A stretch of DNA of 64,000 nt from Anodontia alba (Eukaryota; Mollusca; Bivalvia; Lucinida; Lucinidae). The notes beneath the pieces were generated by a model. It worked only from the letters and a program-made list of their open reading frames with translations, did not search any database and was not told where the DNA came from. The DNA lies in contig OZ024823.1 of assembly GCA_964016985.1 (NCBI GenBank), forward strand, positions 113,917,459 to 113,981,458. Reading direction: 5' to 3'. Made by a program: the position numbers and the translations under genes. Below are positions 1,039 through 57,500 of this stretch, piece by piece. Numbering within the stretch: the first letter of the stretch is position 1; every line of letters begins with the position of its first letter.

Positions 1039-1317
1039 CATTACAAAAGCATGCCTATTCAAATGTATTGAAAATTTCACCACCAAAAACTGAAAGTTTT
1101 CAGATATAAAAATTCTGATATTTTTCATATTTCCGCTCAAAACATAATTTGTGGGTACTCGTTAGAACCGCCTCGACGAGGCGGTTCTAACGAGTACCCA
1201 CAACCTATGTTTTGAGCGGAAATAAGAAAAATAGTGTATACCCCTGTAAACCCCAGTTTTACTATATAAAAGTGGGGTTTAAGGGGGTTAAAATTACATA
1301 GGTATGTTTTCATGATG
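1039..1317 (+). mobile_element. MITE family A copy 1 (hairpin-core MITE)
   Basis: This copy defines family A. The ends are inverted and read CATYACGAAAACAYGCCTAT in consensus. The left arm carries a TTTTCAGATA / TTCTGATATTTTTCATATTTCTGCTC block. The centre is a near-perfect hairpin with 20-nt arms GTACTCGTTAGAACCGCCTC. The right arm holds a CCCCTGTAAACCCCAG / GGGGTTTAAGGGGGTC stem. The length is about 280 bp and there is no ORF for a transposase, so it is non-autonomous. I could not settle the target duplication, so the superfamily is open. Confidence 0.85.
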
Positions 1318-1544
1318 TAGTTTGTTTTTTTTTTTTTATCAAAAGAAAACAAGACAAATAAAGTGACATCTTCGTCCGCTCATCTGGACTTTTACAAACT
1401 CGTGCATCCATTGTGCCACATTACGTTTGATACTCTTGCTCGCGGTATAACTTGATGGTACCCGATTTGGTGATAGTTTCCAATAATTAGAAACTATAGT
1501 CCCTTGTATACTACGTAGGCTAATCATCGGCCCTCTTTCCCTCT

Positions 1545-3213: not shown

Positions 3214-3760
3214 CATTACGAAAACACGCCTATTCAAATACAGTCGACTCCCGTTATCTCGAATTCCAAGGGACTCACTGAAACACTTCGAGATATCCGT
3301 ACTTCGACATATCAGAGTTAAGAGAGTGAGGAAAACAATAAATTGAACAACCACATTTAACAAATGAATGTGTTATTTGACTCCTGAAGTTAGAAATATA
3401 TATATAAATAATGTGGAAAAGAGGAGAAATTGCTCCTTAGGAGCAATTTCTCCTCTTTTCCACATTATTTTGTTACCTGTTGCCATAGTTTCATGTTAAA
3501 ACAGGGACCAGATTTTCACTTCGAGATAAGCGGTAATTCGAAATAAGCGAGTTCGAGATAACGAGGTTCGACTGTACATTGAAAAATTCACCATCAAAAA
3601 ACTAAAAGTTTTCAGATAAAAATTCTGATGTTTTTCACATTTCTGCTCAAAACAAAGATTGTGGTATTCGTTAGAACCGCCTCGCCGAGGCGGTTCTAAC
3701 GAGTACCCACAATTTATAGTGTGAGCAGAAATAAGAAAAATAATGTACACCCCTGTAAAA
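3214..3760 (+). mobile_element. MITE family A copy 3, split by a nested insertion
   Basis: The left end begins CATTACGAAAACACGCC at 3214. It is interrupted at 3241-3574 by a pogo-like MITE, then resumes through the GTT-AGAACCGCCTC hairpin core, and stops at about 3760 after CCCCTGTAAA. The CCCCAG / GGGGTTTAAG right arm is missing, so this copy is 3'-truncated. Confidence 0.8.
3241..3574 (+). mobile_element. MITE family B (pogo-like, TA target), nested in MITE A
   Basis: The ends are inverted: CAGTCGACTCCCGTTATCTC on the left and its counterpart ...GAGGTTCGACTG on the right. TA lies on each side (3239-3240 and 3575-3576). CAGT-type TIRs rich in TCGA with TA duplications are typical of pogo/Tigger-like Tc1-mariner elements. 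The centre has a near-perfect hairpin (arms GAGGAGAAATTGCTCCTNAGG region, 3412-3467), different from the core of other family B copies. Confidence 0.85.
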
Positions 3761-5651
3761 CTGAATGATTTAGCAATTTTGAATCTCCATGTCAACCCGA
3801 TGCCTCCCTTCGAGTTTCAGCGCAATCTGACTCACTGTATTGGAGGAGATGTTGTTTGAAGAATTTCAAGATGGCTGCTACATGTATCTTGGACATAAGA
3901 ACAGAATAATTTTAGCAATTCTGAATTTCCATAACACACCAATGTCCCGTCAAGTTTAAGCTCAGACTTTCCGTTCTGGAGCAGATGTTATATGAAGATT
4001 TTCAAGATGGCTGCCATGGTGGCCATCTTGGATACCAGAACGGAACCATTTAAGTAATTCTTAATCTTCATGCTGCCTGCCCGGATGCCTTCCACAAAGT
4101 TTCCGCTCCATCCGACTTACTGTTCGGGAGCAGATAACAATTGAAGACTTTCAAGAAGGCCGCCATGGCTGCCAACATGGATACGATTCAGATGGAGATG
4201 TTTTAAAATGTGAAAAGTTACTGACGGACATATGGATGAAGGATGGACCATGGTCAACAGACCACGGCATAATCTCCAGGTGAGCTAACAATAGAAGATC
4301 TTCAAAAATGCTGCTGCGGTGGCCATCGTGGATATCGCAACAAAATGCTTTTAGCAATTCTGAATCTCCATGTCACCCCAATGCCTCCCACCAAGTTTTG
4401 GCTCAATCTGATTTACCGTTAGGGAGCAGATGAGTGAAGATTTTCAAGATGGCCACCTTGAAGGCCATCTCAGATATCGGACTAGAACAATTTCAGTAAT
4501 TCTGAATCTCCATGTCACTCCGATGCCCCCAGTCAAGTTTGGGCTCAATCCGCATTACGGTTAGGGAGGAGATTTCATTTGAAGAATTTCAATCTTAGAT
4601 GTCGGAACGGAATGAATTTAGCAATTCTGAATCTCCATGTCTCCCCAATGCCTCACACCAAGTTTCAGCTCAATCCGACATACCATTCGGAAGCATATGC
4701 CGTTTCAAGATTTTCAAGAAGGCCACTGTAGTGGCCATCTTGGATATCAGAACGGATTCATTTTAGCTATTCTAAATCCCTATGTTGCTCCGATGCCTCC
4801 CATTAAGTTTCAGCTCAATCCGACTTACGGTTTGGGAGGAGACGCCGTTTTAATATTTTCAAGATGGACGACATGGCAACCATCCTAGATATCGGAATGG
4901 AATGATTTAACAATTCTAAACCTCCATGTGGCCCCAATGCCATCCACCAAGTTGGGCTCAATCTCTTAGCGTTCCGGAGCAGATGTGGTTTCAAGATTTT
5001 CAAGATGGCGCCCAGGTGGCAAGATGGCCGCCATCTTGGATATTGGAACTGAACGATTTTAGCAATTCTGAAACTCTATGTTGCTCCGATGCCTCCCATC
5101 AAGTTTCGGCTCAACCCAACTTACGGTTCGGGAGGAGATGTCGTTTAAAGAATTTCAAGATGGCGGCCATCTTTGATATCGGAACGGAACGATTTAATTA
5201 ATTCTGAATCTCTTTGTCGCTCCGATGCCTCCCATCAAGTTTCGGCTCAATCTGATTAAATATTTGGGAGGAGATGTTGTTTGAAGAATTTTAAGTTGGC
5301 CGTCATGGCGGCCATCTTGGATATCGGGATGGAACAATTTTAGCAATTCTGAATCTTTATGTCACTGTGGTGCCTCCCATCAAGTTTCGGCTCAATCCAA
5401 CTTACAGTTTTGGAGTAGATGTCGTTTGAAGAATTTCATGGCGGCCATCTTGGATATCGGAATGGAACAATTTAAGCAATTCTAAATCTCCATGTTGCCA
5501 CAATGCTTCCCCCTAAGTTTCAACTTAACCCAACTTATGGTTCTAGAGGAGATGTCGAAAATGTGAAAAGCTAATGACGGACGACGGACGGACGACGGAC
5601 AACAGGCCATGGCATAAGCTGACCTAGAGCAAAGCTCCAGGTGAGCGAAAT

Positions 5652-6879: not shown

Positions 6880-9815
6880 GTATGTTCTATGTTCAGTATG
6901 TCTCCTAGTTTTGCTAATTGATTTATTACTCGGCCCCACTGGATTTTTATTATATAAATATCTAAACGATTTTCGAAGAAAATCGAAGGATGAAGACTCC
7001 AGCAGCTGAAAAGGAGGTTTCGGGTGAATTTTGTGGTAAGTAACCACATACAGATTACTGTATTTACTCTTGTCATTGCGAACCACTTCCGCCACACATT
7101 ACACTTGGCTTTAGCTTGCCTGTCATACACCATGCAACCCTCAGGACACATTCACTTTTTAGCTCACCTGAGCTGAAGGCTCAAGGTGAGCTTTTGTGAT
7201 CACTCACCGTCCGTCGTCGTCGTCGTCGTCCGTATTTCCGTCCGTCCGTCCACAATCTTTAAACAACATCTCCTCCTAAACCACTGATTGGATTTTGACC
7301 AAACATCACAGGAATGATCCTTGGTTGGTCCTCTTTCAAAGTTGTCCAAATGGTTCCGGTCCGTTGCATATCTAGGTCACAGGAGCTAAAAATAGATTTT
7401 TTAACTAAAACTTAAAAAATCTTCTTGTCAGAAACCACTGGACCGATTTCAATATAATTTTGCAGAAATGTTCCTTTGGTGATCCTCTACTAAGATTGTT
7501 CAAGCCATTCGGATTCGTCAAAAAACATGACCGCCAGGGGGCGGGGCTTATTTTCCCTATATATCTATATAGAAAACTTTAAAAATCTTCTTGTCAGAAA
7601 CCACTGGACAGATTTCAATATAATTTTGCAGAAATGTTCCTTTAGTGATCCTCTACCAAGATTGTTCAAGCCATTTGGATTCGTCAAAAAACATGGCCGC
7701 CAGGGGGCGGGGCTTATTTTCCCCATATATCTATATAGAAAACTTTAAAAGTATTCTGGTCCGAAACCACTTGACTGATTTCAATATAATTTTGCAGAAA
7801 TGTTCCTTTGGTGATCCTCTACCAAGATTGTTCAAGCCATTTGGATTCGTCAAAAAACATGGCCACCAGGGGGCGGGGCTTATTTTTCCTATATATCTAT
7901 ATAGAAAACTTTAAAAATCTTCTTGTCCGAAACCACTGGACCGATTTCAATATAATTTTGCAGAAATGTTCCTTTAGTGATCCTCTACCAAGATTGTTCA
8001 AGCCATTTGGATTCGTCAAAAAACATGGCCGCCACGGGGTGGGGCTTAATTTCCCTATATATCTATATAGAAAACTTTAAAAATCTTCTCGTCAGAAACC
8101 ACTGGACTGATTTCCATATAATTTTGCAGAAATGTTCCTTTGGTGATCCTCTACCAAGATTGTTCGAACCATTTAGATTAGGTAAAAAATCATGGCCGCC
8201 AGGGGGCGGGGCTTATTTTCCCTATATATCTATATTGAAAAATGTAAAAATCTTCTTGTCCGAAACCACTGGACCGATTTCCGTATAATTTTGCAGAAAT
8301 GTTCCTTTGGTGTTCCTCTACCAAGATTGTTCAAGCCATTTGGATTTGTCAAAAAAACATGGCGACCAGAGGGCAGGGCTTATTTTCCATTTCCCCTATA
8401 TATCTATATAGAAAACTTTAAAAATCTTCTTGTCCGAAACCACTGGACCGACTTCAATATAATTTTGCAAAAATGTTCCTTTGGTGATCCTCTACCAAGA
8501 TTGTTCAAGCCATTTGGATTCGTCAAAAAACATGGCTGCCAGGGGGGCAGGGCTTATTTTCCCTATATATCTATATAGAAAACTTTAAAAATCTTCTTGT
8601 CAGAACCACTGGACCGATTTCCATATAATTTTGTAGAAATGTTCCTTTAGTGATCCTCTACCAAGATTGTTCGAGTCATTTGGATTTGTCAAAAAACATG
8701 GCCGCCAGGGGGCAGGGCTTATTTTCCCTATATATAGAAAAATGTAAAAATCATCTTGTCCCAAACCACTGGACCGATTTCCATATAATTTTGCAGAAAT
8801 GTTCTTTTGGTGATCCATGATTGTTCAAGCCGTTTGGATTTGTCAAAAAACATGGCCGCCAGGGGGCAGGGCTTATTTTCCCTATATATGTATCTATATA
8901 GAAAACTTTAAAAATCTTCTTGGCAGAAACCAATGGACCGCTTTCAATATAACTTGGAAGGAATGTGTCTTTGGTCACCCTCTTCCAAGGTTGTTCAAGC
9001 CATCATGATTCGTCAAAAAATATGGCTGCAAGGGGGTGGGGCTTATTTTCCCTATATATCTATATAGAAAACTTGAAAAAAAAATCTTCTTGTTTTCCCT
9101 ACATATGTAAATAGAAAACTTTAAAAATCTTCTTGTCAGAAACCACTGAACAGATTTCAGTATAACTTGGCAGGAATGTTCCTTTGGTGACCCTCTACCA
9201 AGTTTGTTCAAGCTGTCATGATTCGTCAAAAAACATGGCCGTTAGGGCGTAGGGCTTTATGGCTATATAAAACTTTTTAAACCACTGGACCAATTTCAAT
9301 ATAACTTGGCAGAAATGTTCCTTTGGTGACCCTCTTTTAAGATTCAGTTCAAGTTGTCAAGATTTGTAAAAAAACATGGCCGGGGGTGTGGTGCAGAGGA
9401 GAAGTACTTCTCCCATTCGCAATAATATGAACATACATGTATAAACTAGCCTGCATGCACTTGGTTACCACGAACCCGAAATATGTTGTATCAGCTGAGA
9501 AGTGACCGTCATTCGCTTTGTTTCGAAAAAAGTATAGACATTTATATAATAAAATTATTTCAAGTCCCTGTATTCGCTCCTAAAAACTTCTGAATAGAAC
9601 GAATTCATATAATTAACGCTAAGCATGTTGGGTAAAAAATTCAGCTGACACTATTTCGAACTAGTTTGCTTGTTTTGTTTTTTTTGTTTTTGTTTTTTGT
9701 TGTTTTTTTTTTTGTATTTTTTTTTTTTGTTTTTTTTTTGTTGTTTTGTTGTTGTTTTTTGTTTTTTTTGTTTGTTTTTTTTTTTTTGTTTTTGTTTTTT
9801 TTGTTGGTTTTTTTT

Positions 9816-9850
<35 letters not shown>

Positions 9851-12169
9851 TTTGTTGTTTTTTTTGTTCTTTTCCCCCAGAAAGTAGACTTTGACCTTTG
9901 TAAGGTCACAACATATGTTTGGACTATAACCCATTGAGCGTGTTTAAATAACTCCCTACAAAGTAAACGCTATTTTCTTACGTATATAATATATTTCTTA
10001 AATCTGAAGATCCAGTAGTAGATACTTAATGTCCCTTATCAGAATCAAAGGACATTTGTTTACATCCAAACGATGAAATAGCATTACGAAAACATGCCAA
10101 TTCAAATATATAGAAAATTTCACCCCAAACAAACTGAACATTTTCAGATAAAAAAAACTCTGATATTTTTCATATTTCTGCTCAAAACATAGATTGTGGG
10201 TACTCGTTAGAACCGCCTCGGCGAGGCGGTTCTAACGAGTACCCACAATCTATGTTTTTTGCAGAAATAAGAAAAATATTATAGACCCCTGTAAGCCCCA
10301 GTTTTACTGTATAAAAGTGGGGTTTAAGGGGGTCAAAATTATATAGGCGTGTTTTCGTGATGGAAAACAAACTGGGTGTGTGGGATGGGAAAATAGTGAA
10401 TTGCAACATACTCATCGGTCAAATTTTGTTTTAAATTCTGCGACGAAACGAACAGTGTCACTTCTAGTATGCATGAATCATGTTAGAGATTAATACAAGC
10501 TGTTGAATGCTTTTACCTTAACACTTTGCATGTTGGGTAAAAATTTCAGCAGGCGACATTTTGAAATTATTTTTCTTATTTTTCCTAGAAATAGGATTTG
10601 ACACTTCACAGGCCTCATCAAATAGTGAAGACCCAGGTCAGATGCAACAGAAAACGGCGTCTGACCTGGGTCTGCTCTGTTTGCCACGCATTTAACAGTT
10701 TAAAGCACACACATTATGAGGAGGCAATCATTGTTAACTGTACCTGATCAAACTTTAGGGTAAGTATGGTAAAGAGTTTTTGTGTCCGAATATTCAGGGT
10801 AAATAAGTTGATCGGGTTATCACCTTTCCGTCTGTCCGTCGTCCGTTCGTCAATCCACACCTTTGAACAACTTCTCCTCTGAAATCCCTGGGCCAATTTT
10901 CTTCAAACTTCATGCGGACACTTCTTTCAAAGGGAGACTGAAAATTTGTACAGTCAGGGTCCGTTAAAAAACGTAGTCACCATGCCCATATATGGTAAAA
11001 CACTGAAAAATCTTCTCCAGAAACAAGAAAGCTTTTAAGCTGAATCTTGATATGTATCAGTTTCTCAAAATGTATTGATGACTAATGGCTAAAATGTATA
11101 ATGTATGATTAAAGTAGTAAAACCTTTTAGTTCCAGTCAAACTGTTGTCCCCTGTGGGTTATATGCCCTTGCCCTTGGGCGAAATACATATATAAAATCA
11201 TACAATCTCTAAATGTCTTCTCGGAAACCGCTTCACCAAGTTTCAGCACATTTGATACGGGACTTTCTGTCGAAGGGGTCAATTTGTTGAAAGGTTCTTC
11301 ACTATTGAACGAAATGGCCGCAATGCCCGTATATGCGAAAAGACTTAAAAATCCTTTTCCAGAACCAAAAAGGCTTAACAAGCTAATTCTTGGAATATAG
11401 CATTAGGGCTGCAAGGTCTACTAAGTTTCTTCAAATGATGGTCCTATGAGGACCTCAAATCTCTGCCCTAGTTGATGTAGCATTTGTGAAAAGTTGTTAC
11501 ATGGCATCTGCAGATATACAATGGCTGTTTTATTCAGGTGAGCGAATCATGGCCCCTGGGCCTCTTGTTTTTATTCCAAATGGCCTTATGATATATGCGA
11601 CCAGATATGACCTAGATCAGCCAGCAATCTGAGCAGTATGATCAGTGCGCTGGTCATTAACATAATGTAAGGATGCGGTCTACGCTGCTCGCATATGCTA
11701 TAAAGTTTCATTACGAAAACACGCCGATTCAAATATATTGAAATATCACCACCAAAAACTAAAGGTTTTCAAATAAAAAAGTCTGATATTTTTTCCTGTT
11801 TCTGTTGAAAATATAGATCGTGGTACTCGTTAGAACCGCCTCGCCGAGGCAGTTCTAACGAGTACCCACAATCTTTGTTTTTGAGCAGAAATAAATAATA
11901 TATACCCTGTAAACCCCAGTTTTACTATATAATAGTGAGGTTTAAGGGGGTCAAAATTATATCGGTATGTTTTCGTGAGGTTTTCTATTCAGAAGTGCTT
12001 TATTTCATGGAAATGTTTAATCATTTCAGATGCTATGTTTTGGTGGGGTGGATATCCAGAGCAACATGCTTTTGCTCAAGAAGACTCCTGGCGCAGAATA
12101 CTAGAACATTTCAAAAAATACATACCTCGTACTTCTAAAACTGATTCAGGAAATACAAGCAAACTTTGA
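6678..12169 (+). CDS. BAAT / acyl-CoA thioesterase family gene, 3' part (two exons)
   Basis: This is the C-terminal part of a bile acid-CoA:amino acid N-acyltransferase / acyl-CoA thioesterase (alpha/beta hydrolase) protein. Known members hydrolyse acyl-CoA or transfer the acyl group to glycine or taurine, in peroxisome or cytosol. Two exons join 6678..6879 to 12030..12169 with matching phase (1 + 2 nt make an Asp codon) and yield 112 residues. Visible motifs are VGEDD (acid of the triad), YPGAGHIIEPPYTPLC (catalytic His and the family signature), WGGYPEQHAFAQEDSW and a terminal helix. The nucleophile motif and N-terminal domain would lie in upstream exons, which I cannot find in 6.6 kb. Either they are farther upstream or this is a gene remnant. 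The last residues, SKL, are a classical peroxisomal targeting signal. Family call confident; enzyme subtype not determined. Confidence 0.88.
7156..9395 (-). mobile_element. Pearl-like element b: ~165-bp tandem array
   Basis: It opens with TTTTAGCTCACCTGAGC and a CGTC / GTCCGTCC microsatellite, the reverse complement of the right end of element c, so it lies in the opposite orientation. About eleven tandem units of roughly 163-169 bp follow. Each contains AAATCTTCTTGTC, GAAACCACTGGACCGATTTC, TTGCAGAAATGTTCCTTTGG, AAGATTGTTCAAGCC and GGGGCGGGGCTTATTTTCCC. It decays after 9380 with no clear far terminus. Long open frames here come from the repeat alone. It occupies the intron between the two BAAT-family exons. 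Confidence 0.7.
9662..9880 (+). repeat. T-rich low-complexity tract
   Basis: About 200 nt of T runs broken by single G, and rarely C or A. Apparent poly-Phe or poly-Lys frames on either strand are artefacts. Such tracts are prone to assembly and slippage errors. Confidence 0.9.
10082..10362 (+). mobile_element. MITE family A copy 4
   Basis: Full-length, with both CAT(T/C)ACGAAAACA-type ends and an intact central hairpin. It lies in the BAAT-family intron. Confidence 0.88.
10628..10685. repeat. Hairpin E copy (GACCCAGGTCAGA type)
   Basis: A short foldback of the family whose arm reads GTAGACCCAGATCAGACGCC and which ends in CTGTTTGCC. Here the arm is altered to GACCCAGGTCAGATG. The flank (10500-10620) has GGGTAAAAATTTCAGCAGGC and TAGGATTTGACA, parts shared with hairpin family F at 28 and 62 kb. 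Confidence 0.7.
10800..11572 (-). mobile_element. Pearl-like element, degenerate fragment
   Basis: It starts at a TCCGTCTGTCCGTCGTCCG microsatellite and continues with ACAACTTCTCCTCTGAAATCC. It contains two partial units (AATCTTCTCCAGAAAC / AATCCTTTTCCAGAACC). It ends TTCAGGTGAGCGAATCATGG...GGGCCTCTTGTTT, matching in reverse the GAGGCCC...GCTCACCT end of elements a and c. It is also in the BAAT-family intron. Confidence 0.65.
11709..11979 (+). mobile_element. MITE family A copy 5
   Basis: Nearly full length. Its right end (TTTTCGTGAGG) lies only 50 bp upstream of the last BAAT-family exon, so the polypyrimidine/branch region of that exon starts almost at the MITE boundary. Confidence 0.85.
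12030..12169 (+). CDS. BAAT/ACOT gene, last exon; tail is repeat monomer
   Basis: The acceptor is TTAATCATTTCAG. The first two bases complete an Asp codon, then AMFWWGGYPEQHAFAQ and DSWRRILEHFKKYI follow, the usual C-terminal end of the family. The final 17 codons (IPRTSKTDSGNTSKL region) and the TGA are homologous base for base to the start of the 96-bp satellite monomer that follows. The gene's C-terminus and stop codon are thus the first unit of the array. SKL at the end fits a peroxisomal PTS1 signal. Confidence 0.9.
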
Positions 12170-18793: not shown

Positions 18794-19072
18794 CATTACG
18801 AAAACATGCCTATTCAAATATACAGAAAACTTTACCACCATAAAATAAAATTTTTCAAATAAAAAATTCTGATAATTTTCATATTTCTGCTCAAAAACAT
18901 AGATTGTGGGTACTCGTTAGAACCGCCTCGACGAGGCGGTTCTAACGAGTACCCACAATCAATGTTTTAAGCAGAAATAAGAAAAATAATGTATACCCCT
19001 GCAAACCCCAGTTTTACTATATAAAAGTGGAGTTTAAGGGGGTCCAAATTATATAGGCATGTTTTCGTGATG
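18794..19072 (+). mobile_element. MITE family A copy 6
   Basis: Full-length copy with an intact hairpin. The left end is CATTACGAAAACATGCC and the right end TTTTCGTGATG. Confidence 0.88.
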
Positions 19073-19204
19073 TTTAGCCATATTACCATAACCCATTAAT
19101 GCCGGGTGGACTCTGCTACCTCAGCAAAGGTCCTTTTTTCATAGTTGGGTTTGCCTGGTTATTTTTTATTATTACCGTATATTTAAGAAATTCCTGTATT
19201 TAAT

Positions 19205-44000: not shown

Positions 44001-47000
44001 AGACGGCAGCATTTCCAAGTTAAAATGCCATGATATATGCGACCAGCGTAGATGAAGCCAGAATTGCACAGTATAAAAAGAGTCCGTCCGTCTCTATGCG
44101 CTACATAATGTATAGGGCACCATGTCATGGCTTCTTTGAAGATGAAGACGTTTACATCTTATTGCGATAATTTGCACAAGCCGATCGCAGCCCTCGCTGT
44201 CTTACAGATCTGTGGGTATTACAAAAATACGTCTACGAAGATATAAAATACTGATCAGTCTGTGTGATTCCTCAGGTCGATCTTGATCTTCACTGTTACA
44301 TACTGACCGTTTTCTTATGTTACGATTCATATTTCCCTGACTAAAGAATGTAACCTGAGTAGTCGGACAACTGGCCCTGATCAGACCCTGATCAGACGCC
44401 GCAGAACGTGGCGTCTGATCAGTGTCTACACTGTTTTTCACTCATACGGCAATTTCAGACATATTTTAGGTAGCAAAATGGACATCAGACAAACCTTAGC
44501 AAACAGTGTAGACCCAGATCAGACGCTTCAAAATGCGGTATTTGATCAGTGTCTACACTGTTAAACAGTTTGCCACTCATACAGCAATTTTAGACATATT
44601 TTAGGTAGCAAAATGGACATCAGACAGACCTGAGCAAACAGTGTAGACCCAGACCAGACGCCGCAACATGCCCTGAGCAAACAGTGTAGACTCAGATCAG
44701 ACGCCGGAAAACGCGGTGTTTGATCAGGTTCTACACTATTTGTCACTCATACAGCAATTTCAGACATATTTTAGGTGGTAAAATGGATATCAGACAGACC
44801 TGAGCAAACAATGTAAAATGGACATTCGACAAACCTGAGCAAACAGTGTAGACCCAGATCAGACACCACAAAACGCGGTGTCTGATCAGGGTCTACACTG
44901 TTTGCCACTTATTCAGAAGTTTAAAACACACAACAGATATATAGGAAAATGGACTTGTTCACAGTTTTAGGCTAAGTGTAGTAAAGAGCCGAGGTGTCCG
45001 AATATTAAGGTAAAATACAGTACCATTTTACACCCATCCAGCAATACGATATATCAACAGGTAGTAAAATGAACCTCAGGCAGGCCTGAGCTAATAGTGA
45101 AGACCCAGATCAGACGCCGGGCTCTGTTTTCAACTCGTAGTTTCAAGTATGCCAACAGGTAGTATAATGGACCTATTATATTGTCATGCTAAGCATGCTA
45201 AGGATTTAAGGTGTCCCAATATTTAAAGTAAATACGGGAGATTTATACCATAAGTGCAATCTGTGCCTCAGGAGTGTTTGGATTAAAAGAGTCGTCATAT
45301 TTCTCTTCTCCTTCACAATGAGCATCAGAAAAGTGACAGCCCGACATATCTCTTGGCTGTAGACCCCAGGCTATATATACAACCACATGTCTGTCAGCCA
45401 AATTCCTCTTAAAACCACGAGAATCGAATTCTATAGCCCTAGCGTAGTTGTGACCGCTTCGATAGAATTGTACCTGAATAGATTACAAATAACAATACCA
45501 CTATTACACACGAAAAATAAAAATCTGAAAATGACATGTTTACCCGCCGCGCCGCGCCAGCCCCACCCCAGCCCCAGCCCCTCCTACTCTCGAACTGTGT
45601 CTGTACACGGATCGGAAAACAAATCCTTAAAAGATTTTGATGACAATATCGCATGTAAATTCCATCTGAGCATATCCCTGACACGGTCATTTAATTGTAT
45701 AGCACTATTGCTATGGTGAAAAAAAAAATAAGGGGAAACAAAGGAGACGTTAATGCCACCAGACATCCGCTGATTCAAAAAGGGCAGGTGTCAGTTTCTG
45801 GTAAACGAATGTGCACAATACTGGTTAACCGCTTAGAGGACTATGCCTGCCCAAAAGTGTGGTTAGTAAACTGACCGCACTCGACATGACCCCACTGTGT
45901 TAATTGGGCCGTAAAACTTCAACACAAACAAAAACAACGACTAACTAACGAGATACTACAACAATGCAAGGCAGTATAATGCCCCTACCGGTATGGTTAA
46001 CCTGTCCAGCCAGGAAAGAATAAATAGCCCTTTTACAACAATACTCCCATCGGGCACACAACGCTGAAACTGTCAGTTCGACGTTGATTCAACATAATGG
46101 CATTGAATCGACGCTGTTTTATGGAACGCCATAGCTTTCTTATGTTGTAAAAGGCTAGTTTATTGTGTTATAAGTTTGGTTACTGTTATATTATGCACTG
46201 ATATATAATGCAGTGATAATAACTAATTGTTAATGAAGAACGACAATGTGTTCAAACTATTATTTAATAAGGTGACTGTCTCTAGCATACAACATACATA
46301 ATCATAGCTACAAGAGAAGTAAAGTATTTTAGAGGCTGACAGTATTTATATTCAGTGAGGTACATCAGTGGGGTTTATCAACAGCTTACATAGAGGATTG
46401 ACTAATAATGTAACATCTCCCTTCTTTAAAAACAACAAAGGTTCAAATTTATTTAAACACCTTAAAATAAAATCCTGTATATCAAACATTTAGTCGTTAG
46501 ATAGCACAAGAAAGTTCAGCCAGTTCAGTGACATACAGATATTTGCAAGGCAGCCAGTTTTTTTTGTTTTTTTTTAGGAGAGCCAGAGTATCTGAATAAC
46601 TTTAATTAGAAATAATTGGTAAACTCATGTTACAATTATTCTAACAGTTTTCACACACACTAATCTGACAAGTTGTTGATAAAGTTAAGTTGATTTTCAG
46701 CAACACGACATTACAAAAATTCCAGGGCAAGAAGAACTGTTTATTTTTCCATTAAAATGTCATGATTTATACCTCGCATGTGTTTTTAACATTATCCTGT
46801 GTCATAGTTCACATAGATTCAATTATTTTTGGTTTCACTGTACGACCAAAGCGCGTAATATATGGCGTCATGTCATTCTTCCCTGGTGGTATAACTGGAT
46901 CAGTATTATTATTCCGCTAAGTGCTGTAAAAATATGATGATAGCATAAAAACCTCCCGGCGCGAAACAGCTTTGGGGCGAATCATGCCCGGTCCCACCTA

Positions 47001-50000
47001 CCAGCCACACAGTCAGGACACCAACTGCTACCGTCTTCTCCTATCGATCCTGAAAACAAGACAAAAACTGTCTTTTCTTTATTCTGATTTGCTGCTTCTT
47101 TGTAAGCATCGTACCCTTCAGCATGCCCAAATATGGATCTTTTCCGGCCGATTTCGCCTTAGCGAATATTCTCTTGCAAATGCCTACCATTTTTTCGACC
47201 ATCCCATTGGACTGACTGTGTTCTGGGGACATTTAAATCAGAGAAAAGTCCCAATCTTTGGCAAACTCTGTGAGCTCTTCAGAGCAAAATTGGGGTGCAT
47301 TGTCAGATAAAAAGTTCATAGGAATGCCATTTCTGGCGAAGGTGGTTTTTAACTTGGCAATGATAGTGCTTGTTTTCATGCTGGGAAGTTTCTGTACTTC
47401 AAAATATTTACTGTAGTAGTCTACAGTGATGAGGAAATTTTTGTCATCCCAAGTAAATATGTCTGAGGCAATGTTCTGCCATGGGTAATCTGGGACCTTG
47501 TGGGGTATAAGAGGTTCTTTGGGATTTGAGCTTCTGCGTTCAAGACAGATAGGGCAGCTTAATACCATCTCGGTAATTTCGGACGAAATTTTTGGCCAAA
47601 ACATCACGTCTCGTGCTCTGCGGAGAGTTTTTTCGCAGCCAAAATGTCCTTGGTGTAATATTTCGAGCATCTTTGGTCTTAAAGCACTCGGAATTACTAT
47701 TTTCTGGCCCTTCAACATTAAGCCGTCGACAACTGTCAATTCATCGCGAAAATTCCAGTAATGTAGTACCTGTTCAGGACAAAGATATCTCTCTTCGGGC
47801 CAGCCTTTTAGGATAACCTGTTTTAGCTGATCCATTTGTGGATCCTGCTCAGTGTGTGCCTTAATCTCTTTCATTTTACGATCACTGATTGGTAGACTCG
47901 ACAACACTGTGTGGACATGTAAATCCATACCCTCGGAAAGTTCTGGGTATGTGTCTGACACATATCTTCGAGATAGTGTGTCAGCGACGGGTATTTTCTT
48001 TCCGCTCACGTATTGAACGTCAGTGTCATACCGCTGTAATTGTAAAAGCATGCGTTGTAGTCTCGGTGGGGCTGTATGAAGAGGCTTTTTCATGATAGAA
48101 CCGATGGGTAAATGATCGGTTTCTACGTGCACTTTGCGACCGTATATGTACTGTTCGAAACGCTTACATCCGAATAAACATGCGTATAGTTCTTTCTCTA
48201 TCTGTGCATATAGGGTTTCTGTGGGTGTAAGGGACTTGGAAGCATATGCGATGGGCTTACCATCCTGCATAATGGTGGCACCGAGGCCTGCCTTCGACGC
48301 GTCACACTGTAAAGTTAGTGGCTTCTTCGGGTCATAATATGCCAGTACAGGGCCTGGGGTCTGAGTTATAACGTCCTTAACCTTCTGAAAGGCATCAGCC
48401 TGGGGCTTATCCCATGCAAATTCCACATCTTTCGCTAAAAGCCTGCGAAGTGGACTCGTAAGTTCCGCCAAGTTTGGACAAAATTTTGAAAGATAGTTTA
48501 TCATTCCCAAAAACGTTTCCAGTTCTGATCTGTTGGTGGGTGGGTCCATATTTCTTACAGCGGAAACCTTATTTGGCGAAGCTTTGACCCCTTGGGCTGT
48601 CAAAATATGACCAAAGTACTCAACTTGTTGGACCCCGACTACCAGTTTGTCCTCATTGAATCTGATACCCTTTTCTAACGAACGTTTAATTACGTTGCAA
48701 AGGTTCTGATCGTGTTCTTCACGCGTTCTCCCATATACAAGGATGTCATCAACGATAGCGACGACCCCTGGGAGGCCTTCTAGGCACTCATCAATTTTCC
48801 TTTGGAACACATCCTGGCTTGACTTCAAGCCAAACGCGAGTCTGAGGTAACGGTACCTTCCGAACGGCGTATTGAATGTAGTGAGGAATGACGACTGATT
48901 TGACAATTTTATAGCCCAATATCCTGATCTAGCATCCAGTTTCGTGAAGTACTTCGCACCTGAGAGGCGAGGTAAGATGTCTTCGAGTGTCCTCATGGGG
49001 TAATGCGGACGCAGAATAGCTTTGTTTAGATGCTGTGGATCTAGGTATACTCGGAGTTTGCCTGTATGTTTACTTTCAACAGCGACCATAGAATTCACCC
49101 ATTCGGTTGGCTCGGTGACCTTGGCGATAATGTTTAGTTTCAACATGCGATCCAGTTCCTGTTTTACTTTATCTCTTAAGGCCACAGGTATCCGTCTTGG
49201 CGGATTTACTACAGGAGAAATGGATGGGTCAAGATGAATTGTACATTCACCTGGAAATAAACCTATACCTTGAAATGCTTTGGCGTACTGTGTCAAAACA
49301 GTAGCTTTCGTGAGATGCTTGGTTTCCAGGAGTTGAGATGCTTGTGTCTCACAGGATAACACTAATTTGATCAATTCCAGATCAATACTTGACCTTAGAC
49401 CAAGTATGGGAGAGGAACACGTCTCTACAATGTAGAAACTAAGGTCTTTCTTTCTGTCTGTACGTTTACAGGTTAATGTGACGCAACCTAATGTGTTGAG
49501 TGTGTTACCACCATAGGCGGTCAATTTGGTTGAAGGTTTTTGAAGTGTGTGATGTAGATTTAGCTTTGTGTAAGTTTGATATGGCAAAATGTTAACTTGA
49601 GAACCAGTGTCTATTTTGAAATTTATAGGTAAAGAACTTGGTCCTACCTCAATTTCCACAAATGCCTGATCATTCACTAATTTATTGCTCTCCACACTAT
49701 CCACAAAGAAATCATCCGAATCACTATTTTGCACTTGTGAATCATAATTCCTCTCAGAAACCTCGTGAACAGACTTTTTAGATCTACACACGATTTCGAA
49801 ATGATTCCATTTATGACAGAAATTGCACTGTTTGCCCTTAGCTTTACACGTTTCTGTCTTTGTGTGTTTATAGCCACAATTGCCACACTTGTCACTTGCA
49901 TATTTCTGTTGCCCTGGTTTGTCCATGCCTCGAGCGCCTCTGTTCCTCTGTTTTCGACCCGATTTCCCCTGTGGTTTAGGATTCGTATGTGTGCCCTTTG

Positions 50001-53000
50001 TCGGTGACGTCTTCTGGGTGGTGTTACTAATGTAATGTACCTCTGTAGAAGCGGCCATGGTCTTCAATTGCTCCTGTGCATATTCGTAGCTTTGAGCTAT
50101 CTGAATAGCTTTGTCCAGCGTGAGTTTGTCCCCTTCGTTTATTAGCTTTTCTCGTATTTTGACTGACGTCACGCCAAACACGATTCTGTCCCTGACCATG
50201 TCATTTTCATAATCTCCGAAGGCGCAGTCCTTGGCTAGAAGTTTCAACTTTGTAATGAACTGTTCAATGGAATGTGTCCCTTGTACTTCATTATTGAATT
50301 TGTAACGTGTGAATACTGGGTTTAGTTTGGGTCTCACATATGCTGCAAATTTGTCATAATGCGGTTTCAGCTTCTTTTTATCGTCATCGTCCAACACCCA
50401 AGTATTATAAATGTCACGACCCTTTTCCCCTACCCATAGGAGAAGATAAGTGCATTTCACCTCTTCCGTTTTTGCCTTTAAGTGGTCCATTGAACACTAA
50501 TTCTACGTGTTGTTGGAATTTTTTCCAAGCCTCGGGGAGGTTGGATGACTCCCAGTCCATGCGCGGCTGTGGAATACCTGATAAGTCCATTTTCACAAGT
50601 TTAAATCCAAGTTTTAAAGCTTAATTAAAGAACAGTTTTTTGTTATGTCAATTGAGTAAAATCCGTTTAGTCTGACACCATGTTATATTATGCACTGATA
50701 TATAATGCAGTGATATTAACTAATTGTTAATGAAGAACGACAATGTGTTCAAACTATTATTTAATAAGGTGACTGTCTCTAGCATACAACATACATAATC
50801 ATAGCTACAAGAGAAGTAAAGTATTTTAGAGGCTGACAGTATTTATATTCAGTGAGGTACATCAGTGGGGTTTATCAACAGCTTACATAGAGGATTGACT
50901 AATAATATAACAGTTACCTTGTCTGAAAAGCGGGAAAATATGTCTATATGATGTGCTATTTTGTTAAAAGCGTATGTTGTTTTGTCCACACAATGTCTTA
51001 TTATGTTAAAAGGTTATGTTATCATGATAAACGCACGTGTTGTTATGGACACACAGTGTCTTATTATGTTAAAACGATATAGTGTTATGTTAAACTCGCG
51101 GGTTGTTTTGTCCGCACGGAGTCTTATTATATTAAAAGGCTATGCTATTATGTTAAAAATTGGTGTATCTTGTCTACGAAGCATGTAAACTTGTCAATAC
51201 AACATGTTATTATGTTAAATGCATATGTTGTTTTGTCCAAAAAGTGTCCTATTATGCTAAAATGTTATGTTATTATGTTAAATGCACGTGCTGTTTTGTC
51301 CAAACAGTGTCCCGTTATGTTAAAATGCTCTCTTATTATGTTTAAAAATGGGTTATCTTGTCTATAAACCGTGTTATAATGTCACACACGCGTGTTGTTT
51401 TGGTCACACACAGTCTTATTCTGTTAAAAGGCTATGTTATGTTAAAAAAGCTTTGGTTAATACATCATGCTATTGTGTTAAACATTTGTGTTGTTTTGTC
51501 CAAACAGTGTCTTATTATGTTAAAAGGCTATGTTATTATGTTAAGAAATCCGGTTATCTTGTTTATGAAGCATGTGAACTTGTCTGTAAACGTGATATTA
51601 TGTTAAAAGCATGGTGTGTTATGTCCACACACAGTCTTATTTTGTTGAAAGGCTACGCTATTATGTTAAAATTTGGGTTATCCTATCTATGAACTATTTG
51701 AACTTGTTTATACAAAGTGTTATTATGTTAAACTGCTATGCTGTTTTGTCCACACTGTATCTTATTATATCAAAAGGCTATGTTGTTATGTGAAAAAGTT
51801 GGGTTATCTTGTCTACGAAACACGTGAACTTGCCTACACAAACTGTTATTGTGTTTAACTCTCATGTTCTTTTGTCCATCCAGTGTCTTATTATGTTAAA
51901 AGACTATATTTTTTATGTTGAACACGTGTGTTGTTTTCTCCACACAGTGTCCTATTATGTTAAAAGGCTATGTTACTATGTTAAAATGTTGGGTTATCTT
52001 GTCTACGAAGCATGTGAACTTGTCTATACAACTTGTTATTATGCAAAGGGGTGTGTTGTTTTGTGTACATAATATCTTATTATGTCAAAATACTATATTA
52101 TTATATTAAAAAGTTGGGTTATCTTGTCTATGAAGTATGTGAACTTGTCTATACTAGGTCTTATTATTTAAACGCACGTCTTGTTTTGTCCACACAGTGT
52201 CTTATTATGGTAAAGGACTATGTTATTATGTTAAAACGCGGTGTTGTCTTGGTGAATCGATATGTTGTCTTGTTTAACTGCGTGGTGTTGTTCCCGAAAA
52301 TTTACGCATGCGACATTGTGTGGACAAAACGACACGTGGGTTTGAAAATAACATATCATCTAGACAAGTTACTCTTAGATATGATGATCCAAACTTTAAC
52401 ATAATGACATACACTTTTGACATAATAAAAACACCGTGTAGACAAGTCAATGCAATATGTTGACAAAATGACATACCTGTGTAAGATAATAACACACTAT
52501 ATAGACAAATTCACATGCTTTTTAGACAAGATTAATCCATGTTGTGACAAAATCAAATGGTTCTTTAACATAATAAAACAGTGCGTGGGCATGTCAATAC
52601 TATATATTGACAAAACAACACGAGTCTTTAAGATAATAACATAATGCATCGCCAAATTCACACAATTCTTAGACAAGACAACAAGAAATATAACAACATA
52701 AGACAGCTTTGGTGTTCCATACTGTTTCAACGTTGTGAGCCTCCAGGCTGTCTACTATCCACTATTATACCACATTTAAAGATTCTGTCTTCAATTAGTT
52801 GGTAAGGAAACGTGGCACATAAGTTCAGTTTTCCAAATACACACATTACAGACAAAAGAAGAAACTAACTAAAAAGGGAAGGAAAAAATACAAATTATGA
52901 CCACAGTTACGTGATCTGACGCTTTGTATCACGTCAAATGGATAACCCCACTTTTATATAGTAAAGCTGGGGTTACAGGGGTATACGTTATTTTTCTTAT

Positions 53001-54531: not shown

Positions 54532-57500
54532 TATATATATATAGGAACATATTTATAAACATTTTAACCTACTCATGCTCAATAGATTCTGCCATTCTGT
54601 AAGTGGAACTAATTTCATTTACTCTTTGAAAGGATTGGTTATTGTAATAGTAGAGAGTGCGTCCGACCCTGACCAGACGCCACGTTCTGTGGTGTTAGAT
54701 CTGGGTCTACCGTTGTTTTCCGAAACGGGACGTTAGATAATAATGAATATCTGAGAGATAATGACATGAAAAGGCTAAAGGAAATTTTATTACTAACTTG
54801 TTCATTGTCTGGTTCCAGATGAGAAGCCGAGTAGGCGAACAATCCAATCATAACAACCATGACCGCCAGTATCATCCATCGACACAGTTTATGTGTTACA
54901 AATCTGTAAAAATAAATGCTGAAAAAGCGAACCAGAAGTTTCTTTTCTATTGCAGTGGAACGCTTTGTGGCACCTTCATTAACATCTGAAGTGGTTTCTG
55001 ATTCAGTATTATCTCCTGCTCTTTCAACGTTTGTTAATTTTTTCTCAGTTTCGATTTGTTTGATATTTTCACGATCTTCACAAAACATTGGACTATCTAC
55101 ATCCTTATCCATTTCAAACCCCCTGTTCACATGATCATATTCAGGAATTTTAAAACAAGCATCTTTCCCTGTTTCAAAACTGTTGTGTAATTGATTTTTA
55201 AGCGTATCATTGTTAACAGTTTTAGAGCTTGACCTGTCATTGCCTGCTGTAGGGGTTCTTACAGAAATTATTTTAGATTTATCTGCGCATTGTTTTTCTT
55301 TAGATTTACAGCAACGCCACTTCCCATAGATAAAACATGGCCATCTGTATTTCTTGAAATATATATGGTGTGTCAAAACAACAGGCGGTAAGAAAATAAT
55401 AACAGATATATAGTTAATTATAACCAATAATCCTGCAAATATACCGAATGATCTCGCAGCTAATAAAGGAGAAAAAGCACTTGCAAAGAAAGCGATTGCA
55501 GTTGTTAAAGACGTGACAAACATGCTGCATACTGTTTTTCTGTACGAGTGTGAAAGCCGATGAGCTAGAGTAGGGTAGGTTTTGTAAGCTGTATTCTTCC
55601 ACACATCCAGTAATACAAACAAATCGTCTGCTCCAATTCCTAGAATAATGAATATTGCAACAATATGAAAGAAGCCGAAATACCTGAAATCTAATATTAT
55701 CCTGTATATAAGATTAGAGATGAGGAAGCTAGTACCAATACTCAGTATCGCGAACGACGAAATCCAAAGCGACTTGGTATGATATACAATAAAACAAAAT
55801 ATGAATGTCAGACTTCCAGCAGCGAGTGTTATCTCTTTCACGGCTTGTTCCGCAGTATCCGATTTGAATAACAAATAACTCCAGTAAACAATATCAAACT
55901 CACTAGTATTTGACTTCAGTTTCAGTATCGCTGGTTTGAATGTATCAACTAGAAACTTCTGCATTCTTTCCTCCATTTGTTTGAGGCCTTCCTCCTCTTT
56001 TAGAGGATAACCAATTGGTATTACAGTTCGTGTGAATGAAGCATGGGCAAATGTTTGTGTGATTGTACTATCTTTAGCCAGGAAAACAGACAAATAATGC
56101 TTTGTGTGATTATTGGTACTTGCAGCATGTAATACATTTGAGATGTTATTATAATGTGGATCATAAAATACATGGCTAATATACGCATATGTACCATCAA
56201 AGAACCGTAGAATAGAGGCGGGTTTTGCGCACGTTAAAGGAAGGATTTGTACACAGTAGTTGGAATACTGTTCTAGAGATGTTATATTATTTTCTATGTA
56301 TTCAATTCTTTTGAGATTTTGTGTCGTGAAGATATTTTTACTTCCATTGTCGTAATATAAAACAATATCACCACGTCCATAATGTTTGGAACGATTCCAG
56401 TTTGGTGAACTCTGCAGGTACAGTTTTCTGTTGTATTTTTTTTCGTAGTCGTCACGATATTTCCACGCCCATTCCCGCCGTCGCCAAGGAACGTTCCAGT
56501 CATACATTGGTAGATTGTCAAAATCCGCCGGAAATAAATCAAAGCCTGATAATAACATGGCCACGGTTATAGCTATGATCAGCAGGTTTCCTGTAAGTGT
56601 TATGCCTGCAATGAAAGACATTTCAGGATTAACCATTACGAAAACACGCCTATTCAAATATATTGAAAATTTCACCATATTTCTGCTCAAAATATAGATT
56701 GTGGGTGCTCGTTAGAACCGCCTCACCGAGGCGGTTCTAACGAGTTCCCACAATCTATGTTTTTTTAGCAAAAACAGGAAAAATAATGTATACCCCTGTA
56801 AACCCCAGTTTCACCATATAAAAGTGGGGTTTAAGGGGGTCAGAATTATATAGGTATGTTTTCGTGATGATTTAACTCTTTCCAGTTTAGGAAATGGATT
56901 TTCCATCATTGAATTTGGACTTGTTCATTATTGCAAATAGGGATGTCAGTCAAAAATCAAAACAAAATGGAAAACAGTATAGATAGTGATGATATTACTC
57001 ATTAAGAGCCATCTCATATGAATCTACACTGTTTGCATTGGCATCTTTACCGATCTACAAGATAGAAAGGTTTAAAAAGATAGCTCGAAATGTTTAGATA
57101 TAGCAGGCGGCACATTGAAAGATTTTCTTATTTTTTCGTATTTTTCGGAGAAAATCCGGAGTTGGGAGCGGAAGTAAACGGACAATTGCGATTGTACGTC
57201 ACTTGCGATGTTATACAGTGGACGCTCAGGCACTTGTTCTTAAATATAATTTGGTGGTATACCAAATATATAAAGACAGCAGCCATGAGCATGGACGTAG
57301 AGATTTTTTTTCTTTTATTTACGTAAGTTGCTTATATAACTTCGATGTGTATTGATATCATAAGTCTATCGATGGAAACACTGGCGTTGATCATTGTCCT
57401 GTATCACCTTTTTGCTGACCTACTTTACTGAACAGCGGAGAAAATGTTCAGAAAATATCTAAATTACACTTTGGGCATTTTTGTGACGTATTCAATCATC

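What the first reader, a model, noticed from the sequence alone, without database searches (positions are those of the whole stretch)
46558..47125. LTR retrotransposon carrying a piece of host TXNDC17 (TRP14)
Seen: between integrase and the 3' LTR, on the element's own strand, 47119-47002 encodes the N-terminal half of a TXNDC17-like protein, including the WCPDC active site. The LTRs and a 5-bp target duplication enclose it, so it moved with the element. Known: TXNDC17/TRP14 is a small cytosolic thioredoxin-fold protein, with no role in retroelements. Inference: this is a gene-fragment transduction by a Ty3/gypsy element, seldom documented in molluscs.
Basis: partly seen in the sequence, partly recalled or inferred. 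Interest (0 to 1): 0.9.

Follow-up and report, generated by a model that had tools for sequence, protein, structure and literature searches.

The report
Gypsy retrotransposon with a host-gene scrap
A broken copy of what is probably a mollusc jumping element has lost the end of its integrase gene and carries in its place about 200 bases that include the first exon and the start of the first intron of a host thioredoxin-like gene; this kind of gene-fragment capture is known from other organisms, and here it is probably without function.

Summary
The TXNDC17 (TRP14) match is real. It lies inside a young Ty3/gypsy-type element on the minus strand: 232-bp LTRs with 2 differences and a GTTAC duplication. 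The foreign stretch is 206-209 bp (47125/47122 to 46917), not 46558-47125: the element's own pol C-terminus (46916-46812) follows it, so the A-rich run near 46558 is not the tail of a captured mRNA. It replaces 163 integrase residues found in a 97%-identical relative; 0 of 120 listed relatives carry TXNDC17. A probable parent exon 1 exists (P0321): 45 of 47 residues agree, including five read from the intron and the same end point. So the piece is unspliced: end of exon 1 plus at least 20 bp of intron 1; 65 bp beside it are unassigned. "It moved with the element" is not shown: repair of an already inserted copy would look the same, and the host genome could not be searched. I favour template switching onto unspliced host RNA slightly over DNA repair. 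Gene-fragment capture by LTR elements is a known kind; this looks like a dead copy.

The parts
46179..46183 (.). target-site duplication GTTAC, left copy
   Evidence: bases just outside the LTR
46184..46415 (-). 3' LTR, 232 bp
46416..46427 (-). purine tract next to the 3' LTR (AAAGAAGGGAGA)
   Evidence: sequence; role given from general knowledge
46812..46916 (-). element's own pol C-terminus (35 residues), stop codon following at 46811-46809
   Evidence: 33 of 35 residues identical to P0002; frames
46917..46981 (-). 65 bp of unassigned origin (more of intron 1, or another source)
   Evidence: no match in the window better than E 0.15, none in Rfam up to E 1, no signal against intron translations of six relatives
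46982..47001 (-). start of TXNDC17 intron 1 (GTAGGT donor), 20 bp supported by reading RWDRA and the same end point as P0321
47002..47125 (-). 3' part of TXNDC17 exon 1 (HAEGYDAYKEAANQNKEKTVFVLFSGSIGEDGSSWCPDCVA + first base of the split codon)
   Evidence: PF06110 E 2.6e-10; PDB TXNDC17; P0321 45 of 47 residues identical over exon and intron start
47123..47125 (-). 5' joint; CAT fits both the element (Gly-Ile codons) and the host exon (His codon)
   Evidence: inferred from the proteins P0002 and P0321; the nucleotides of both parents were not seen
47126..50496 (-). gag (part), protease-like DTG motif (by eye), RT, RNase H, integrase core, with an in-frame stop (47233-47235) inside integrase and no integrase C-terminal part
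50414..50620 (-). ORF with the N-terminal part of gag, in another frame than the rest
50665..50680 (-). primer-binding-site position just after the 5' LTR (TGGTGTCAGACTAAAC)
   Evidence: matching tRNA not identified
50681..50912 (-). 5' LTR, 232 bp
50913..50917 (.). target-site duplication GTTAC, right copy

Best explanation
A defective Ty3/gypsy-type copy in which the C-terminal part of integrase (163 residues in the nearest relative) was replaced by a 206-209-bp stretch that includes the end of exon 1 and the start of intron 1 of the host TXNDC17 gene, in sense orientation. Shown by sequence comparison: host exon, intron start, own pol C-terminus after it, LTRs and duplication. Inferred: while copying the element's RNA from its 3' end, reverse transcriptase left the template near the pol C-terminus, copied part of an unspliced TXNDC17 transcript packaged by chance, and returned to the element RNA inside integrase at a short shared stretch (CAT); the chimeric cDNA was then integrated, with enzymes supplied by relatives that have a complete integrase. 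The captured piece encodes nothing useful here: integrase enters it in another reading frame and stops within it.
For: Element anatomy. TXNDC17 identity. Probable parent exon 1: (45 of 47). Retained intron: of the 220 TXNDC17 proteins listed carry the motif; 177 have Ala or Ser at the position after the exon end (spliced type), 1 has Val, and 17 have Gly, as an intron read-through would give (14 of the 17 are 47-111 residues long); P0321 is of the Gly type, as is this copy. Replacement, not addition. Relatives without it: 120 of 120 listed. Short overlap at the 5' joint. Sense orientation and two switches fit the published model of template switching at microsimilarities inside virus-like particles (PMC5408686, passages). 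Host piece and LTR divergence are of the same order (at least 2 changes in 141 bp against P0321; 2 in 232 bp between LTRs), so the capture is not clearly older than the insertion.
Against: The retained intron speaks for a DNA or nuclear source, while such particles form in the cytoplasm around mRNA (PMC5408686, passages). The 3-base overlap is weak and inferred from proteins. Sense orientation has a one-in-two chance. No second copy with the same joints was seen, since no host DNA outside the window was at hand. The 65 bp at 46981-46917 have no known source, and the test for intron there gave no signal.
Confidence: 0.48

Rival explanations
1. DNA-level event: a break inside an already inserted copy (or in its unintegrated cDNA) was repaired with loss of about 490 bp and a templated insertion copied from the TXNDC17 locus. 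The fragment then never moved with the element.
For: Intron start retained; loss and gain at one place; short overlap at a joint; templated insertions from distant regions are described in the human genome (PMC5110952, start of abstract in a listing).
Against: Nothing found against it; it explains the structure equally well. It needs an independent rare event in the element, whereas template switching is part of the element's own cycle.
Confidence: 0.4
2. The segment is an ordinary domain of this element family that merely resembles TXNDC17.
For: None found.
Against: 0 of 120 listed relatives have it; the 97%-identical relative P0002 has integrase C-terminus at this place; P0321 has a normal TXNDC17 start (MSKVIHAEGYD) in place of element sequence.
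Confidence: 0.01
3. A variant of the best explanation: a lineage of chimeric elements carries the fragment and spreads it, helped in trans by relatives with complete integrase; the TXNDC17 piece in element transcripts might then affect the parent gene through small RNAs.
For: Young LTRs and relatives with complete integrase exist (P0002, 50 member sequences).
Against: No second chimeric copy seen; the host genome could not be searched. A small-RNA effect on the parent would normally need antisense RNA (general knowledge).
Confidence: 0.07
4. Assembly or library chimera.
For: The assembly was not checked against reads.
Against: It would need two false joins 206-209 bp apart inside one element with LTRs and duplication in place, and the copy differs from P0321 at two residues.
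Confidence: 0.04

Closest known systems
Gene-fragment capture by LTR retrotransposons in plants (Bs1 of maize, PMC13317346, passages; 425 intact elements with gene fragments from at least 189 captures in maize B73, 168 of the elements Gypsy, PMC2774510, passages)
   Same: host gene piece inside the internal part of an LTR element
   Different: animal host; exon-intron joint kept; only one copy known here
LTR-mediated retroposition in metazoans (Tan et al. 2016, not held; described in PMC5408686 and PMC8232201, passages)
   Same: host sequence between element sequences, LTRs in place, short similarity at a joint
   Different: those retrocopies are intron-less (PMC8232201); here intron 1 begins inside the piece
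Extra ORFs captured by bdelloid rotifer LTR retrotransposons (PMC5408684, title and start of abstract in a listing)
   Same: added sequence in an animal LTR element
   Different: there whole ORFs kept in element families; here a broken fragment in one copy
Templated sequence insertions at DNA breaks (PMC5110952, start of abstract in a listing)
   Same: copy of a distant locus placed elsewhere
   Different: here inside a mobile element; whether before or after its insertion is unknown

Membership tests
Ty3/gypsy LTR retrotransposon | two direct LTRs with TG...CA ends, target duplication | tested here: met
   232-bp LTRs, TGTTA...AACA ends, GTTAC duplication
Ty3/gypsy LTR retrotransposon | pol order RT - RNase H - integrase | tested here: met
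   Pfam order RVT_1, RNase H, Integrase_H2C2, rve; no tree against named clades was built
TXNDC17 (TRP14) | PF06110 match above cut-off with WCPDC motif | tested here: met
   40.4 bits against 23.1; positions 3-43 of 119 only, so a fragment
LTR-mediated retrocopy (spliced mRNA copied) | introns of the parent absent | tested here: not met
   intron start RWDRA shared with P0321
LTR-mediated retrocopy (spliced mRNA copied) | poly(A) at the 3' joint (may be present) | tested here: not met
   pol C-terminus follows at 46916; the A-rich run 46575-46558 lies beyond it
Gene-fragment capture by an LTR element | host gene exists elsewhere in the genome | tested here: inconclusive
   P0321 is a probable parent, but comes from unnamed contigs; same species likely, not shown
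Gene-fragment capture by an LTR element | fragment mobilised with the element (same joints at other loci) | not testable with these tools
   The genome search did not answer in 18 tries
Templated insertion at a DNA break | normal version of the same insertion in other individuals | not testable with these tools
   no second individual's DNA at hand

The most novel reading that the evidence does not exclude
An active bivalve gypsy element packages unspliced nuclear transcripts and has given rise to a small lineage of chimeric copies with the TXNDC17 exon-intron joint, so that this element family takes up pre-mRNA, not only mature mRNA.
Probability: 0.08. Interest if true: 0.55.

Novelty: new member of a known kind. 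Interest (0 to 1): 0.3.

Why it matters
It adds one well-bounded case of host-gene capture by a gypsy-type element in a probable mollusc, with the joints placed almost to the base and an exon-intron border kept. That border makes a clear test possible between RNA-level and DNA-level capture. By itself the copy is defective and is not likely to have a function.

Tried and rejected

Ordinary element domain: rejected.

The 65 bp at 46981-46917 as more of intron 1: tested by aligning them to back-translated intron readings of six relatives (P0326, P0329, P0333, P0334, P0335, P0341). For P0326 73 of 200 shuffles, for P0329 99 of 200, for the other four 54 to 152 of 200 reached the score: no signal, and the test is weak. 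A seventh relative, P0337, was put in and skipped by the script because its tail was too short.

Parent gene in the window: none; besides the piece itself, tblastn gave three matches, best E 0.056.

Nucleotide relatives: none in viral contigs, genome contigs or phages; the tools say that records of the window's own genome may be left out there. Rfam gave one sub-threshold match in the element, far from the insert; ARAGORN found no tRNA gene in the window, so the primer tRNA was not identified. Host genome: the genome search did not complete in 18 calls.

Literature: no held paper has both 'TXNDC17' and 'retrotransposon'. Searches (20 of 61 papers listed; 12 of 65; 10 of 13) showed no mollusc case in the titles and abstract starts listed. 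Of the papers opened, one reports retrocopies in a land snail and, in the passages seen, does not place them in single LTR elements (PMC9719178); a survey of mollusc LTR retrotransposons has no hit for 'captured', 'host gene', 'additional ORF' or 'transduc' (PMC6238403). This does not show that none is in print.

Full report
What the element is. On the minus strand, 46184-50912 is an LTR retrotransposon: LTRs of 232 bp at 46184-46415 and 50681-50912 with two differences, GTTAC on both outer sides, a purine tract at the 3' LTR and a primer-site position after the 5' LTR. The long ORF 50496-47233 holds RT, RNase H, the integrase zinc part and the integrase core in that order, the order of Ty3/gypsy (general knowledge; no tree was built). 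The copy is broken in several ways: the N-terminal part of gag lies in another frame (ORF 50620-50414), integrase has an in-frame stop at 47233-47235, and its C-terminal part is gone. Close relatives exist: P0002 is 97% identical over residues 700-1080 (1267 aa, 50 member sequences); 2331 proteins were found and the best 120 listed, and the named ones listed include several bivalves, abalone and fishes.

What the insert is. tblastn of the C-terminal part of P0002 on 46416-47500 gives two strong matches: 128 residues (122 identical) ending at 47116, the last two better read as host sequence (below), and 35 residues beginning at 46916, 33 of them identical. The 163 residues between (P0002 1070-1232) are absent from the window. 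They are found in 113 of 120 listed relatives, P0002 itself included; 0 of the 120 hold a TXNDC17-like piece at E 1 or a CPDC motif. The seven without the 163-residue match are P0005, P0012, P0046, P0074, P0078, P0098 and P0116; I did not ask whether these are cut-off records. So the insert replaced element sequence; it is no domain of the family as listed.

Which host gene. The piece matches PF06110 at positions 3-43 of 119, E 2.6e-10, and solved TXNDC17 chains. Among named species in the proteins compared the nearest is Dreissena polymorpha, 72% over 39 residues. A better match is P0321, an 80-residue record from two unnamed contigs of up to 1.24 Mb: it reads MSKVIHAEGYD, a TXNDC17 start, after a stretch unlike the element, matches PF06110, and agrees with the window at 45 of 47 residues from H to the end. 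The two differences change residues, so at least 2 of 141 bases differ. Two further unnamed records, P0326 and P0329, match at 82% and 80%.

Unspliced. Of 220 listed TXNDC17 proteins, 195 carry the motif. In 177 of these the second residue after CV is Ala or Ser, as in full-length proteins; in 17 it is Gly, as expected when a genomic frame runs from exon 1 through a phase-1 border G|GT (14 of the 17 are 47-111 residues long; three are mammalian records of 158-167 residues); 1 has Val; 25 of the 220 lack the motif. The window and P0321 both read VAG-RWDRA and both end there. I take the last five residues as intron. The captured piece thus runs from exon 1 into intron 1 by at least 20 bp, with a good donor (G|GTAGGT; donor quality from general knowledge).

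The joints. At the 5' joint, 47126 is G: the host Ile codon cannot end in G, so this base is the element's. At 47122 the base is G: the element Ile codon cannot end in G, so this base is the host's. CAT at 47125-47123 between them fits both. This rests on the proteins P0002 and P0321 as stand-ins for the parents. At the 3' joint the element resumes at 46916. The insert is 206-209 bp. The 65 bp at 46981-46917 have no assigned source.

How it came about. Two routes explain the same anatomy. In template switching, reverse transcriptase copies a co-packaged host RNA and returns, with short similarities at the switch points, as described for LTR elements in animals (PMC5408686, passages); this is part of the element's own cycle and fits the LTRs and duplication. 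In break repair, an inserted copy loses about 490 bp and gains a templated patch (templated insertions: PMC5110952, listing); this fits the retained intron better. The age signals do not decide: 2 of 232 between the LTRs, at least 2 of 141 to the probable parent. I give 0.48 to the first and 0.40 to the second.

Function. Downstream of its in-frame stop, the integrase frame passes into the host piece in a frame other than that of TXNDC17, runs on for 24 residues past 47116 and stops at 47043-47041; the TXNDC17 frame itself ends after five intron residues and lacks most of the domain. I see no product and expect none.

Standing. Capture of gene fragments by LTR elements is well known in plants (425 elements, at least 189 captures in maize, PMC2774510, passages), and LTR-made retrocopies are reported in mosquito, Drosophila, zebrafish and chicken (PMC5408686, passages). 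This is a new member of that kind, with the unspliced border as its one unusual trait. The main gap is the host genome search, which could not be run.

Noticed in passing
window 46606-46558 (-): ATTAAA, then 25 bases later A9-C-A8, in the element's 3' untranslated part; looks like a poly(A) tail with its signal, but lies beyond the pol stop and its origin is unknown.
   Followed up: partly
window 50914-52300: array of related units with 21-bp and 125-bp spacings (TGTTATTATGTTAAA...) directly next to the 5' LTR, open in some frames on the plus strand.
   Followed up: no
window 54639-56711 (-): 690-residue ORF with sterol-sensing/Patched domain.
   Followed up: partly
window 1039-1318, 1544-1822, 10082-10362, 18794-19073, 37443-37164, 40127-39848 and others: family of repeats up to about 280 bp, 81-94% alike in the 100 rows printed, in more than a dozen places on both strands.
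   Followed up: no
window 3759-5557 and 7407-9382: two long tandem arrays, seen as many shifted self-matches.
   Followed up: no
P0005, P0006, P0082, P0113: gypsy-type proteins filed under bacterial MAGs (Candidatus Thiodiazotropha, Sedimenticola): probably animal host DNA in the bins.
   Followed up: no
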